Of a DNA stretch of 64,000 nt, positions 24,023 through 60,991 are shown piece after piece. Origin of the DNA: Methanofervidicoccus sp. A16 (GTDB lineage Archaea > AGJL01 > Methanococci > Methanococcales > Methanococcaceae); assembly GCF_003351865.1 (NCBI RefSeq), contig NZ_CP022242.1, positions 558,001-622,000 on the forward strand, written 5' to 3'. A program made the translations under genes and the position numbers. Within the stretch, counting starts at the first letter, position 1; every line of letters begins with the position of its first letter. Below the pieces are notes generated by a model, which was not told the DNA's origin, did no database searches, and was given only the letters and a program-made list of their open reading frames with translations.

Positions 24023-24308
24023 ACCCTAGTTCCCATCAAAAGGATAGTTTAAAGAATAATAAAAATAATTATAAAAATAATAATATTTTAAAATAAAAAC
24101 TTCTATCTTTTAAAAAGAAGATTGGAGGAGAATGATCCTCTGAATATTTTTTAATACAGGAATTTGGAATAGGATTTTTCTATCTTACCTAAGGGTTCGG
24201 AAAGATCTTAGAATATCTAAATATTTTTAATTGATTATTTAATTATGATTTTTACTATAATAATTATCTTTTTATTATTCTTTAATTACTACTGATGGGA
24301 ACTAAGGT
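24023..24308. mobile_element. MITE-like element, core type 2
   Basis: The left end is ACCCTAGTTCCCATCAAAAG and the right end, read in reverse, ACCTTAGTTCCCATCAGTAG. Both continue into an arm containing AAAGAATAATAAAAA. The core includes AAGATTGGAGGAGAATGATC and TAAGGGTTCGGAAAGATC, repeated at 27781-28280, 47727-48218, 51276-51555 (inverted) and 58320-58640. It lies in the gap between ychF and the prepilin peptidase. No open frame. Confidence 0.7.
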
Positions 24309-24429
24309 AGTAATCCTACTTGTTTCTCCAGTGTCCAATATAGAAAGAAAAGGTTATATTTTATTTTTCTGCTATAATAATCATTATTTTTATTATTCTT
24401 CTAATTACAATCTTGATGGGAACTGAGGT
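24309..24429. mobile_element. Adjoining MITE module with an outer terminal repeat
   Basis: It starts exactly at the right end of the type 2 element with AGTAATCCTACTTG, includes TTTCTCCAGTGTCCAATATAG, and ends in a terminal repeat (reverse reading ACCTCAGTTCCCATCAAGAT). The same module with the same junction follows the type 2 element at 48005-48148, so the two parts probably form one composite. Confidence 0.6.
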
Positions 24430-56607: not shown

Positions 56608-56665
56608 ATAACCTTAATTTCTATTAGAAAAATCTTGATAAAAATCAATTATTATTAAAAATAAA
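56608..56665. repeat. Solo MITE-like end in the cdhA-lyase divergent region
   Basis: ACCTTAATTTCTATTAGAAA followed by AATCTTGATAAAAATCAATT resembles the end of a type 1 element (compare 38492). No partner end is present. It lies in the 221-base region that must hold the promoters for cdhA and the plus-strand chorismate lyase-like gene. Confidence 0.45.
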
Positions 56666-56721
56666 TATTATAAAATTTTTTATTTTTATTAAAATTATTA
56701 TTTTTATTAGGTGAATGTCTA

Positions 56722-57228
56722 ATGGTGTTAAAACCTTACAGAATTATAAATGAGTTATCTAAAAAGTATTCTCTTAGAAACGAGGAGAAGATGCTCTTAG
56801 GTACCGACGGAAGTGTTACTAACCTACTGGAGATTCTCTTCAACGATGAGATCACTGTGGAAACCATCAGTCAGAAAATAGTAGACGGTATAAACTACAG
56901 AAGTGTAATACTTAAGATTAAAGATACTCCCTTAGTATACGCCACCTCAAAGATCCCCCTGAAGAGTATCGAGGACAAAACATTAAGGGACAACATTAAG
57001 AGGGATCTACTATCTGCAGATATTCCTATCGGTAAGATCTTGAAAATACATAACTTGGAAACTCGGCGGGAGATAGTAGATATATCCTGTAAAGAGGTAG
57101 AAGAATCCGTTAGAAGGTACCTAAATACAGAGAAAAGAGTTCTTCCCCAGAGAACATACCATATTATATATAAGAGTAAGGTACTTATGGAGATCACTGA
57201 AATATTTAATGTTGGAGAACACCTATAA
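56722..57228 (+). CDS. Chorismate lyase-like protein (DUF98)
   Basis: A 168-residue protein of the DUF98/chorismate pyruvate-lyase-like superfamily. LLGTDGSVTNLLEILFNDEI and VYATSKIPLKSI are family blocks, and TRREIVDI contains an Arg pair that in UbiC-like folds binds the substrate. In methanogens 4-hydroxybenzoate is a precursor in methanopterin synthesis, so a chorismate lyase is expected, but activity is inferred. The ATG at 56722 lies 7 to 8 bases after AGGTGA. The amrS gene starts 11 bases after its stop, so they are co-transcribed. Confidence 0.72.
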   Translation: MVLKPYRIINELSKKYSLRNEEKMLLGTDGSVTNLLEILFNDEITVETISQKIVDGINYRSVILKIKDTPLVYATSKIPLKSIEDKTLRDNIKRDLLSADIPIGKILKIHNLETRREIVDISCKEVEESVRRYLNTEKRVLPQRTYHIIYKSKVLMEITEIFNVGEHL

Positions 57229-57239
57229 TTGGGATAACT

Positions 57240-58274
57240 ATGGTTATCAGAAAAAATGAAGAAAAACTCCACGAGGCTATGTACTACGAGCCTTTAGATA
57301 ATAAATTAGTTAGATGCACCCTATGTCCCAGATACTGTGTAATTCCCCCCGGTAGAAGAGGTTTCTGTAGGTGTAGGGAGAACATAGATGGAAAACTCTA
57401 CGCCATAAACTATGGTAAAGTATGTTCCGCCGCTGTAGATCCCATTGAAAAAAAGCCCCTCTATCACTTCTATCCAGGTTCCCTTACATTCTCTATAGCC
57501 ACTGGAGGATGTAACTTTAGGTGTAAACACTGTCAAAACTGGGAGGTTAGCCAGAGGGCCCCTGACGAGATTATCTATACTACCCTCTACCCCGAGGATA
57601 TAGTAAAGATGACACTAGAATATAGATGTGACGGTATATCCTACACCTACACTGAACCGACAGTATTCTACGAACTTATGTACGATACTGTGAATATAGC
57701 CAGGAGGAAAGGTTTATACAACGTCATGGTGACAAATGGATATATAAACGAGGAGCCCTTGAGAAACTTAAAGATAGACGGGATGAACATAGATATAAAA
57801 GGCAACGAGAGGTTTTACAGAGAGGTGTGTAGTGGATCACTGGAACCTGTTCTGAGAACTGCCGTACTCTCCAAAAAGATGGGTATCCATGTGGAGATAA
57901 CTAACCTTATAATACCTACCTACAACGACAACATAGAGGATATTTTAAATATAATACACTTCGTAAGGGACTACTTAGGTAGAGATACACCTCTCCACTT
58001 CACAAGGTTCTTCCCAAGGTATAAGTTGTTAGATATCCCTCCAACACCTATAGAGGTTTTAGAAAGGGCTAGGAACCTTGCCTTAGAGGAGGGTTTAAAG
58101 TACGTCTATATAGGAAACGTCCCAGGACATGAGGGGGAGAATACCTACTGTCCAAAGTGTGGAACTCTACTTATAGACAGATCGAAATTTACAGGGATAA
58201 TTATTAATATCGATAGAAGTTCTGGGATTCCAAAGTGTCCTAACTGTGGAGAGGTGGTGGATATAGTGATGTGA
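57240..58274 (+). CDS. amrS: AmmeMemoRadiSam system radical SAM enzyme
   Basis: A 344-residue radical SAM protein of the AmrS/pyruvate-formate-lyase-activating-like family. Cys ligands are C91-x3-C95-x2-C98 (CNFRCKHCQNW). An N-terminal cysteine set (CTLCPRYCVIPPGRRGFCRC, 26-45) and a C-terminal zinc-ribbon pair (YCPKCGTLLIDR; CPNCGEVVD) frame the core. Its substrate is unknown. The AMMECR1 partner is at 3502-4125. It is co-transcribed with the chorismate lyase-like gene, 11 bases upstream, and starts at ATG 57240 after GGGATAACT. A Memo-family gene is not in the window. Confidence 0.9.
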   Translation: MVIRKNEEKLHEAMYYEPLDNKLVRCTLCPRYCVIPPGRRGFCRCRENIDGKLYAINYGKVCSAAVDPIEKKPLYHFYPGSLTFSIATGGCNFRCKHCQNWEVSQRAPDEIIYTTLYPEDIVKMTLEYRCDGISYTYTEPTVFYELMYDTVNIARRKGLYNVMVTNGYINEEPLRNLKIDGMNIDIKGNERFYREVCSGSLEPVLRTAVLSKKMGIHVEITNLIIPTYNDNIEDILNIIHFVRDYLGRDTPLHFTRFFPRYKLLDIPPTPIEVLERARNLALEEGLKYVYIGNVPGHEGENTYCPKCGTLLIDRSKFTGIIINIDRSSGIPKCPNCGEVVDIVM

Positions 58275-58319
58275 TAAAAGTTTCAAATAAAAATAAAAAC
58301 TAAAATAGAATTACTACAA

Positions 58320-58751
58320 TTTACTTTTTTAAGATAGTTTAAAAAAAATAATAAAAATAACTATAAAAATAATAAAAATAAAAAATAAAGAAAATGTTTA
58401 AAAACAAAAAACTTTTATTATCCTAGATACAAAAATTTAAAAAGAAGATTGGAGGGGATGGTCCTCTGTATATCTTCTAATACAGGGATTTAGAATAGAA
58501 TTTTTTATCTTACCTAAGTGCTCAAAAAGATCCTAAGGATATCTAATATTTTTATAATTGATTATTTTCATTATGATTTTTATAATTATAATGACTATCT
58601 TTTTATTATTTTTTTAATTACTACTATGGTGGGATAAGGTTATTTACTTTTTTATCTCCATCCCTTCAGAATTATTTTATTATTATTTCTCATAAGAATT
58701 TTTATTATTTTTTATTATTCTTCTAATCACAATCTTGATGAGAACTAAGGT
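58320..58751. mobile_element. MITE-like element, core type 2 plus type 3 module, overlapping the cobY 3' end
   Basis: The left end is degraded (AAGATAGTTTAAAAAAAATA at 58331). The type 2 core (AAGATTGGAGGGGATGGTCC) is at about 58445, and its right end GTGGGATAAGGT at 58640. It is followed at once by the type 3 module (CATCCCTTCAGAATTATTTT) and a terminal repeat ending at 58751 (reversed ACCTTAGTTCTCATCAAGAT). That end lies inside the cobY reading frame. Confidence 0.65.
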
Positions 58752-59370
58752 ATATAATATTATCTTTCTTAGTGTTATCATTATTTATACTCTTGATAAT
58801 TGCCTCCGCTATTTCCCTCTCCTCTAAGGTATTCACATTTAGAATAGGTTCCTCTAGAATATACAGTTTTTCTACCTGTTCCCTATTTGCAGGATAGAGT
58901 ATATTTATACCTATTGGGATGTACTTTCCCATGGCTACTGTAGACCTGCCAAGATACTTATCTCTCTCTACCACCACACAGAGGGCCTCTAAATCTCTAT
59001 ATTGAGACCTTAAGGTATAATATTCATCAACGATTTCATCTATAATCTTAGGAGTTATAGTAGGTATATCACAGGATACTACCATAAAAGGCTCTGAGAA
59101 ATACCTCATAGAGTAGTTTATATCATAGATGTAGCCTTTTCCAGGAGTGTCAATTATTTTTATTCTTTTATTAGGATACTTCTTAGAAAGATATTCCTTA
59201 GTTTTTCTGGTATTTTTAGACACTGCAATGTATATATTCTCTATTTTGGAGTTTAGAAGGGAGTAAATTACGTAATCTATCATAGGTTTTTTTAAAATTG
59301 GTAATAGTGGTTTTTCTATTTTAACTTTTAGCCTACTACCTTTTCCACCAGCCATAAGTAGGGCATCCAT
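58723..59370 (-). CDS. cobY: Adenosylcobinamide-phosphate guanylyltransferase
   Basis: A 215-residue nucleotidyltransferase that activates adenosylcobinamide phosphate with GTP in the archaeal cobamide pathway, replacing bacterial CobU. LMAGGKGSRLKV (5-16) and EKPLLPILKKPMIDYV are the nucleotide-binding signature; SCDIPTIT is the metal site. The protein is about 20 residues longer than M. jannaschii CobY (about 196). The last nine codons and the stop (YLSSHQDCD) are read from the terminal repeat of a MITE-like element, so the extra tail looks acquired. ATG start at 59370 with GTGAAAAT. Confidence 0.9.
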   Translation of the reverse strand: MDALLMAGGKGSRLKVKIEKPLLPILKKPMIDYVIYSLLNSKIENIYIAVSKNTRKTKEYLSKKYPNKRIKIIDTPGKGYIYDINYSMRYFSEPFMVVSCDIPTITPKIIDEIVDEYYTLRSQYRDLEALCVVVERDKYLGRSTVAMGKYIPIGINILYPANREQVEKLYILEEPILNVNTLEEREIAEAIIKSINNDNTKKDNIIYLSSHQDCD

Positions 59371-59587
59371 ATTTTCACAATTTTATTTTAATTAAATAAA
59401 ATTAAAAATAATTATAATAATTAAAATTATAATTAGAATAAAAAATAGTTAAAATGAGGAGAAAAATAAAAAAGGTTTAAGGTTAACAGTATAGTACAAA
59501 ACCAAGTAATATTTTATTTTTTACTGTATTTATTCTTTATTAAGTATTATCATTAATTTAATATTATATCATCAACTACTATACAAA

Positions 59588-60991
59588 TTATCCCAATGTT
59601 TCCCTAATTGCCTCATAGAGATTTCTACATAGAAACTCTATCTCCTCCTCTGTAATAGTTAAAGGAGGAACTAATATTATGGTGTTAAGGATAGGTCTCA
59701 TATATATACCTCTCTTAAGTAGGTTCTCTGCAACCTTATAGGCCACCTTCTCCCTGTATGGGTAGGGTTCCTTAGTTCTCTTATCTTTCACCAACTCAAT
59801 ACCTACCATAAAACCTCTCTTTCTAACATCTCCCACATGTTCCAACTCCTTCAACCTCTCTAACTCCCTATGGAACATCTCTATCTTCTTATTCACATTC
59901 TTAAAGAAGTTCTTCTCCTCTAATATCTCCAAGGTGGCAAGTGCCGAGGTACATAACAACTGATTTCCTGTATAGGTATGTCCATGGAAGAAATGTCTAA
60001 ACTCTTCAAAATCTCCTAAGAATTGGTTGTATATTTCATCAGTTGTCATGGTAACTGCTAAGGGGAGATACCCTCCAGTTATTCCCTTTCCAATTGTAAT
60101 TATATCTGGTTTAGATATGCTTCTTAACTCCTCCCTCTCGGAATAAAGATATCTACCAAGTCTTCCAAAAGTTGCAACCTCGTCTAATATAAATATTATA
60201 CCCTCCTCCTTGGATCTCCTCGCCAACTCCTCTATGTAGTTATCTGGATATGGGATCATCCCAGCAGAGCCCATCACCCCCCCTTCAAGTATTATACAGA
60301 ACAACTCATCTTTCTTCTCCTCCAAGAGTTTCAACATATCCTCGAGGCAGTCCATACTACACCCCTTCTCCATCCTCTCATCTGTATCCCTGAAGTTGTG
60401 GCCGTATCTACACCTGTAGCAGTAGGGAGGATTTCCATGATATCCCTTAAATAGGAGGGGCTTAAATAAACCGTGGAAGATCTCACTACCTCCTACACTC
60501 ATGGCTCCAAAGGTATCTCCATGGTAGCCCTCCTTCACAGAGAGGAACTTAGTTCTCTTTTTATTTCCTTCAGGATCCTTTAACTGGTAGTACTGAAAGG
60601 CTATCTTAAGGGCGATCTCAACAGCCTCTGAACCATCCTCCGAGTAGAATACTTTAGTTAGATGAAGGGGGGTAATTTCAACAAGTTTCTTCGCCAGGAG
60701 TATAGAGGGAATATTACCACATCCCAAGAGAGTAGAGTGGCATATCTTATCTGCCTGTCTCTTTATCTCCTCAATAATTCTCTTTTCACTATGACCAAAG
60801 AGGTTGCACCATATCGAGGATACTGCATCTAAGTATCTATTCCCGTAGATGTCTATAAGGTAGTTGCCCTCCCCCCTCTCTATTATTAGATTTTTAAAGG
60901 GAGGATCGTACTCCTTCATCTGGGTGTATGGGTGCCATACGTACTTTTTATCCCATTGAGCAAGGTCTTCAGGGGTGTAATTCTCTTTCAT
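59588..60991 (-). CDS. bioA: Adenosylmethionine-8-amino-7-oxononanoate aminotransferase
   Basis: A 467-residue class III PLP aminotransferase of biotin synthesis, making 7,8-diaminononanoate. WHPYTQMKEYDPP and YLDAVSSIWCNLFGHS at the N terminus, KEGYHGDTFGAMSVGG, FILDEVATFGRLG and the PLP-lysine block DIITIGKGITGGYLPLAVT are specific to BioA. The rest of the pathway is not in the window. The insert with cysteines (YCYRCRYGHNFRDTDERMEKGC, about 190-213) is unusual for BioA and may bind metal. ATG start at 60991 with GGTGAAACC. Single-gene unit. Confidence 0.92.
   Translation of the reverse strand: MKENYTPEDLAQWDKKYVWHPYTQMKEYDPPFKNLIIERGEGNYLIDIYGNRYLDAVSSIWCNLFGHSEKRIIEEIKRQADKICHSTLLGCGNIPSILLAKKLVEITPLHLTKVFYSEDGSEAVEIALKIAFQYYQLKDPEGNKKRTKFLSVKEGYHGDTFGAMSVGGSEIFHGLFKPLLFKGYHGNPPYCYRCRYGHNFRDTDERMEKGCSMDCLEDMLKLLEEKKDELFCIILEGGVMGSAGMIPYPDNYIEELARRSKEEGIIFILDEVATFGRLGRYLYSEREELRSISKPDIITIGKGITGGYLPLAVTMTTDEIYNQFLGDFEEFRHFFHGHTYTGNQLLCTSALATLEILEEKNFFKNVNKKIEMFHRELERLKELEHVGDVRKRGFMVGIELVKDKRTKEPYPYREKVAYKVAENLLKRGIYMRPILNTIILVPPLTITEEEIEFLCRNLYEAIRETLG

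What the first reader, a model, noticed from the sequence alone, without database searches (positions are those of the whole stretch)
58723..58751. A MITE-like terminal repeat encodes the C terminus and stop codon of CobY
The end of the element at 58320-58751, read on the minus strand, is ACCTTAGTTCTCATCAAGAT plus its arm. In the cobY frame, with one base pair of codon upstream, it reads Y-L-S-S-H-Q-D-C-D-stop. The protein is about 20 residues longer than M. jannaschii CobY. An insertion near the original 3' end has apparently replaced the native tail.
Basis: partly seen in the sequence, partly recalled or inferred. Interest (0 to 1): 0.68.

Follow-up and report, generated by a model that had tools for sequence, protein, structure and literature searches.

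The report
Mobile-element tip ends the cobY gene
In a heat-loving methane-making archaeon, one copy of a very abundant small transposon lies against the cobY gene, so that its tip supplies the enzyme's last nine residues and its stop codon; this looks like a harmless side effect of genome rearrangement, and similar cases are known in bacteria.

Summary
On the minus strand 58723-58751 is the end of a repeat, and in the cobY frame it encodes Y-L-S-S-H-Q-D-C-D-stop. The repeat is a real MITE family: 420 terminal-repeat ends in a 1.5-Mb genome against 4 for the control, inverted ends, and target-site duplications peaking at 8 bp. The same ends bound IS982-type transposase genes in related methanogens, while the host genome shows no match to the transposase profile I searched.

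The interpretation needs correcting. Only 29 bases of cobY (residues 207-215 and the stop) are element. Orthologue homology ends at residue 194-197, and 10-12 further residues are neither conserved nor element. CobY tails vary across the order, no orthologue shares this one, and it is predicted disordered.

The locus is also rearranged. Relatives have bioA-cobY-g168-rSAM-CODH on one strand, with cobY overlapping or abutting g168. Here the g168-rSAM pair is inverted, the MITE lies at the cobY junction and a decayed MITE end lies at the other junction. A simple insertion replacing the tail is therefore not the whole story. MITE invasion plus inversion separated cobY from its neighbour (inferred), and translation now stops in the MITE tip.

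A direct precedent exists (Coxiella QMITE2/enhC). New member of a known kind; low interest.

The parts
58723..58751 (-). 29 bases of MITE end that encode CobY residues 207 (last two bases of the codon) to 215 and the TAG stop
58732..58751 (+). outer terminal inverted repeat of the MITE (end type 'b2'), ATCTTGATGAGAACTAAGGT
58333..58751 (.). MITE copy, composite type a1...a2-b2; same architecture as the copy at window 24023-24429; left tip (about 58313-58332) eroded or lost; no ORF of 50 aa or more lies within it
   Evidence: (left tip not above shuffles)
58616..58640 (+). inner, mutated element end (type a2, AATTACTACTATGGTGGGATAAGGT)
58723..59370 (-). cobY, 215 aa; orthologue homology to residue 194-197, unassigned residues about 197-206, element-coded residues 207-215
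58752..58781 (-). linker coding about residues 197-206; neither alignable to orthologues nor similar to the element family
57240..58274 (+). AmmeMemoRadiSam-type radical SAM gene (rSAM), inverted relative to relatives
56722..57228 (+). g168, chorismate pyruvate-lyase-like gene (PF01947), inverted; its start overlaps or abuts the cobY stop in G005, G008 and G010
56611..56675 (+). decayed MITE end (type 'b1', ACCTTAATTTCTATTAG...) at the second inversion breakpoint; local score 31 against a shuffle maximum of 21.5
24023..24429 (.). reference full-length composite copy (a1...a2-b2, 407 bp) with 10-bp flanking repeat AATTTTCTAG

Best explanation
The sequence is the outer end of one copy of a high-copy IS982-type MITE family. 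Shown: the family, its ends and its target duplications; that the cobY reading frame runs into this tip and stops there; that the g168-rSAM pair next to it is inverted compared with all relatives that keep it beside cobY; and that element ends lie at both breakpoints. Inferred: in an ancestor cobY lay directly before g168. MITE insertions, followed by an inversion between or next to MITE copies, separated the two genes and left cobY without its old stop. Its frame then ran through about 30 bases of junction DNA into the MITE tip, whose AT-rich arm gave a TAG after nine codons. The tail is an unstructured, tolerated by-product. It persists because CobY does not depend on its last residues.
For: Family: 420 end matches against 4 control; 12 of 69 candidate pairs have perfect 8-bp flanking duplications, against 1-3 at most neighbouring lengths. 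IS982 link: the same ends bound transposase ORFs in G023, G014 and G006, and the G014 protein's best NCBIfam match is IS982 (1.8e-35). CobY: no orthologue shares the tail and lengths are 194-210 aa; AlphaFold pLDDT is below 50 for residues 198-215. Rearrangement: bioA-cobY-g168-rSAM-CODH lie on one strand in G005 and G008, as do bioA-cobY-g168-rSAM in G004; g168 and rSAM are flipped in the window. Trees of cobY and rSAM put G000 inside this group with G004 outside, so the same-strand order is ancestral. The CODH upstream sequence is native down to 56594, 16 bp from a decayed element end at 56611.
Against: No target duplication is detectable for this copy, and its other tip is unrecognisable, so the order of insertion and inversion is not proven. 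The relatives' compact cobY/g168 overlap could itself be derived, since G004 also has a spacer. The 30-bp linker is unexplained. Expression and translation of the tail were not measured.
Confidence: 0.72

Rival explanations
1. Simple insertion: a MITE jumped into or just before the old cobY stop codon, and nothing else happened to the C terminus.
For: The element end lies in frame within cobY. A clear case of this kind exists elsewhere in the genome: in L068 a MITE with a 9-bp duplication cuts a membrane-protein gene, and its tip adds TLVPIKRIV-stop.
Against: The downstream neighbours are inverted and a second element end sits at the other breakpoint; homology stops 10-12 residues before the element; no duplication is found.
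Confidence: 0.2
2. A 2.1-kb composite unit bounded by two MITE ends (56611 and 58751) containing rSAM and g168 was excised and put back, or flipped by transposase, in the opposite orientation, so cobY lost its tail through composite transposition.
For: Outward-facing ends of types b1 and b2, which together bound a single element with a perfect TSD at L070, lie on either side of the inverted block.
Against: The two flanks share no 8-bp duplication (TACCAATA against ATATAATA, read). The b1 end is far more decayed than the b2 end, so they need not have acted together.
Confidence: 0.15
3. The tail is a selected, functional extension (for example stability or interaction) captured from the MITE.
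For: Nothing direct; the reading frame is open and intact.
Against: It is present in one genome only; predicted disordered; relatives have unrelated tails at 194-210 aa total.
Confidence: 0.03
4. The C terminus is ancestral and the resemblance to the repeat is chance.
For: None.
Against: A 20-base end with 0.01 matches expected against 6 found in the window; no orthologue shares the residues.
Confidence: 0.01

Closest known systems
QMITE2 of Coxiella burnetii at enhC (PMC5896051)
   Same: A MITE at the 3' end of a working gene supplies the protein's C-terminal residues (33 in that case, with the stop immediately downstream of the element); the authors note that all functional annotated genes affected carry the insertion at the 3' end.
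   Different: Bacterial, a different MITE family and a longer tail; no gene-pair inversion was noted in the passages read. Here the host is an archaeon and only 9 residues come from the element.
Rickettsia palindromic elements (RPE; cited in PMC10969869)
   Same: Small repeats translated as part of host proteins.
   Different: RPEs carry a conserved ORF and fuse in frame inside many genes; here only one intact gene among 269 tips checked clearly reads into an element, and the element has no ORF of 50 aa or more.
IS982 family insertion sequences (the ISMja1-type element of M. jannaschii; name from own knowledge)
   Same: Same terminal repeat ACCxTAGTTCCCATC and short target duplications around an IS982-type transposase in Methanocaldococcus and another Methanococcales genus.
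   Different: The window elements are about 220-510 bp without a transposase gene, and no PF13612 transposase was found in their own genome.

Membership tests
MITE (non-autonomous IS derivative) | Terminal inverted repeats in many copies | tested here: met
   420 ends, 208 forward and 212 reverse, control 4; paired inverted ends
MITE (non-autonomous IS derivative) | Target-site duplications (family level) | tested here: met
   12 perfect 8-bp cases of 69, above every shuffle in mean identity at 8 bp
MITE (non-autonomous IS derivative) | Target-site duplication of the cobY copy itself | tested here: inconclusive
   None found; the other tip is unrecognisable, so the boundary is unsure
MITE (non-autonomous IS derivative) | No transposase gene inside | tested here: met
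   No ORF of 50 aa or more within 58333-58722
IS982-derived | Ends shared with an autonomous-type IS982 element | tested here: met
   G023 (303-1289 of L103, TSD taattatc), G014 L107, G006 L114; NF033520 1.8e-35, 122.7 bits, just under the 130-bit cut-off
IS982-derived | Autonomous partner present in the same genome | tested here: not met
   No PF13612 match in G000; other DDE profiles not searched. A partner in the same genome is usual for active MITEs but not required for descent from IS982
CobY (adenosylcobinamide-phosphate guanylyltransferase) | Full-length match to the curated equivalog above cut-off | tested here: met
   NF045495, 294 bits (cut-off 250), residues 1-193; 2mzb/3rsb residues 1-194

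The most novel reading that the evidence does not exclude
The rSAM-g168 pair between two outward MITE ends (56611-58751) behaved as a composite mobile unit that turned round in place in an archaeal operon, so that a MITE tip now acts as a portable stop for the upstream gene.
Probability: 0.15. Interest if true: 0.4.

Novelty: new member of a known kind. Interest (0 to 1): 0.27.

Why it matters
It documents, in a methanogenic archaeon with hundreds of MITE ends, how small transposons alter protein ends and operon order without destroying genes. The C terminus of CobY is shown to be freely variable, which is useful when choosing start and stop points for this enzyme. The wider value lies in the MITE family itself: very dense, with several alternative end types, and with no transposase of the searched type left in the genome.

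Tried and rejected
Rfam search of 57500-60000: no RNA family. PF13612 transposase in the own genome: none. TSD of the cobY copy: no exact or one-mismatch repeat at the left end. Origin of the 58752-58787 linker from another element: best score within shuffles. Left tip of the copy: score no better than shuffles. Frameshift of a native stop (comparing AGTATAAATAAT with the G001 sequence by eye): suggestive, but the DNA alignment ends there, so not claimed. Other genes reading into tips: 269 distinct tips gave cobY, one truncated membrane-protein gene (L068) and a few ORFs, most without a Pfam match or not scanned; one Pfam match (BacA/UppP) looks like a chance tip match.

Full report
What is there. 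The window is part of a closed 1,504,113-base genome related to the Methanothermococcus MAGs and single-cell genomes found. cobY (58723-59370, minus) encodes 215 residues and is a bona fide CobY (NF045495, 294 bits). Its last 29 bases, 58723-58751, are the outer end of a repeat: + strand ATCTTGATGAGAACTAAGGT at 58732-58751 plus nine bases of arm. The frame reads Y(207)-L-S-S-H-Q-D-C-D(215)-TAG; the first base of the Tyr codon is flank.

The repeat is a mobile element. Its 15-base end occurs 208 times forward and 212 times reverse in the genome at up to two mismatches; the control gives 1 and 3. Ends pair as inverted repeats mostly about 220-510 bp apart. Among 69 candidate pairs, 12 have a perfect 8-bp direct repeat exactly at the boundaries; at 7, 9 and 10 bp there are 2, 3 and 3, and only the 8-bp mean identity clearly exceeds all shuffles. 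The same end sequence bounds transposase genes in related genomes: G023 (two copies of about 987 bp, one with TSD TAATTATC), G014, G006 and G028. G028 is M. jannaschii by its 1,664,970-bp chromosome (own knowledge). The G014 protein is closest to NCBIfam IS982. No PF13612 match exists in the window's own genome. So these are MITEs of an IS982-type element whose transposase is absent from, or at least not detected in, the host.

The cobY copy is composite (inner end a2 at 58616-58640, outer end b2 at 58751). It aligns along its length with the copy at 24023-24429, which has both tips and a 10-bp flanking repeat. The cobY copy's left tip is not recognisable and no TSD is found.

Where CobY homology stops. 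Across 18 Methanococcales CobYs the alignment is conserved to about residue 192-194. Beyond it every lineage differs, with total lengths of 194-210. The DNA alignment with the close relative G001 ends at 58782. Residues from about 197 to 206 are therefore neither conserved nor element, and only residues 207-215 are element. The solved structures of M. jannaschii CobY have 196 residues and match residues 1-194 of the query. AlphaFold gives pLDDT below 50 for residues 198-215 (shallow alignment of six sequences, and the loop at 8-25 is also low). The tail is best seen as tolerated, not functional.

The locus is rearranged. In G005 and G008 the order is bioA-cobY-g168-rSAM-CODH, all on one strand, with cobY overlapping the g168 start (AGGTGAGGCATCTAATGG in G005) or sharing the TAATG junction (G008). 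G010 keeps the overlap up to its contig end. G004 keeps bioA-cobY-g168-rSAM on one strand but with about 330 bp, including element remnants, between cobY and g168. In the window g168 (56722-57228) and rSAM (57240-58274) are on the opposite strand while bioA, cobY and CODH keep theirs. The cobY and rSAM trees put G000 with G005/G008/G010 and G004 outside (rSAM 95/95, cobY 96/94), so the same-strand order is ancestral and the inversion is on the G000 line. Upstream of g168 the window still has AGGTGAATGTCTAATGG, matching the cobY/g168 junction of G005, G010 and G004; this is also the likely ribosome-binding site. At the other breakpoint the CODH upstream sequence is native down to 56594, and a decayed element end of the b1 type covers 56611-56675 (local score 31 against a shuffle maximum of 21.5). 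MITE material thus marks both breakpoints.

Interpretation. Element insertion and an inversion that used or fell next to MITE copies separated cobY from g168. cobY now runs through about 30 bases of junction into the MITE tip and stops in its arm. All three frames into each of the four end types examined close within 2-20 codons, because ACCYTAG holds a TAG and the arms are AT-rich; no special coding role is needed. Of 269 distinct tips examined, cobY is the only clearly intact gene that reads into an element; the other clear gene is truncated by one (L068). The order of events is inferred.

Known or new. The Coxiella QMITE2/enhC case, in which a MITE provides the last 33 residues with the stop immediately downstream, is a direct precedent, and its authors report that functional genes affected by QMITE carry it at their 3' ends (PMC5896051). 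The review PMC10969869 describes in-frame MITE fusions as not unusual. I found no paper on this archaeal family, but the library is partial.

Noticed in passing
whole genome G000; window 17709-58751: About 420 MITE ends in 1.5 Mb, an unusually dense IS982-type MITE population, with no PF13612 transposase detected in the same genome.
   Followed up: partly
L052 497-542 and 886; L051; L067; L050 454-923; L070 368-878: Elements carry nested alternative ends (types here called a1, a2, b1, b2, c, d) 40-110 bp apart. TSDs show that either inner or outer ends were used, as if elements grow outward by adding ends.
   Followed up: partly
window 56722-58274: Two-gene inversion (chorismate pyruvate-lyase-like g168 and AmmeMemoRadiSam rSAM) within an otherwise conserved bioA-cobY-g168-rSAM-CODH operon.
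   Followed up: yes
L068 879-1172 (G000:C1:772378-772671): A MITE with 9-bp duplication TTCTATACA interrupts a multi-pass membrane protein gene; the rejoined flanks extend the reading frame by about 75 codons.
   Followed up: partly
G004 L115 about 2060-2390; G001 L116 3645-3775: Related species also carry MITE remnants just downstream of cobY, at other positions and, in G001, with the a1 end facing cobY; possibly repeated insertion into the same gap.
   Followed up: partly
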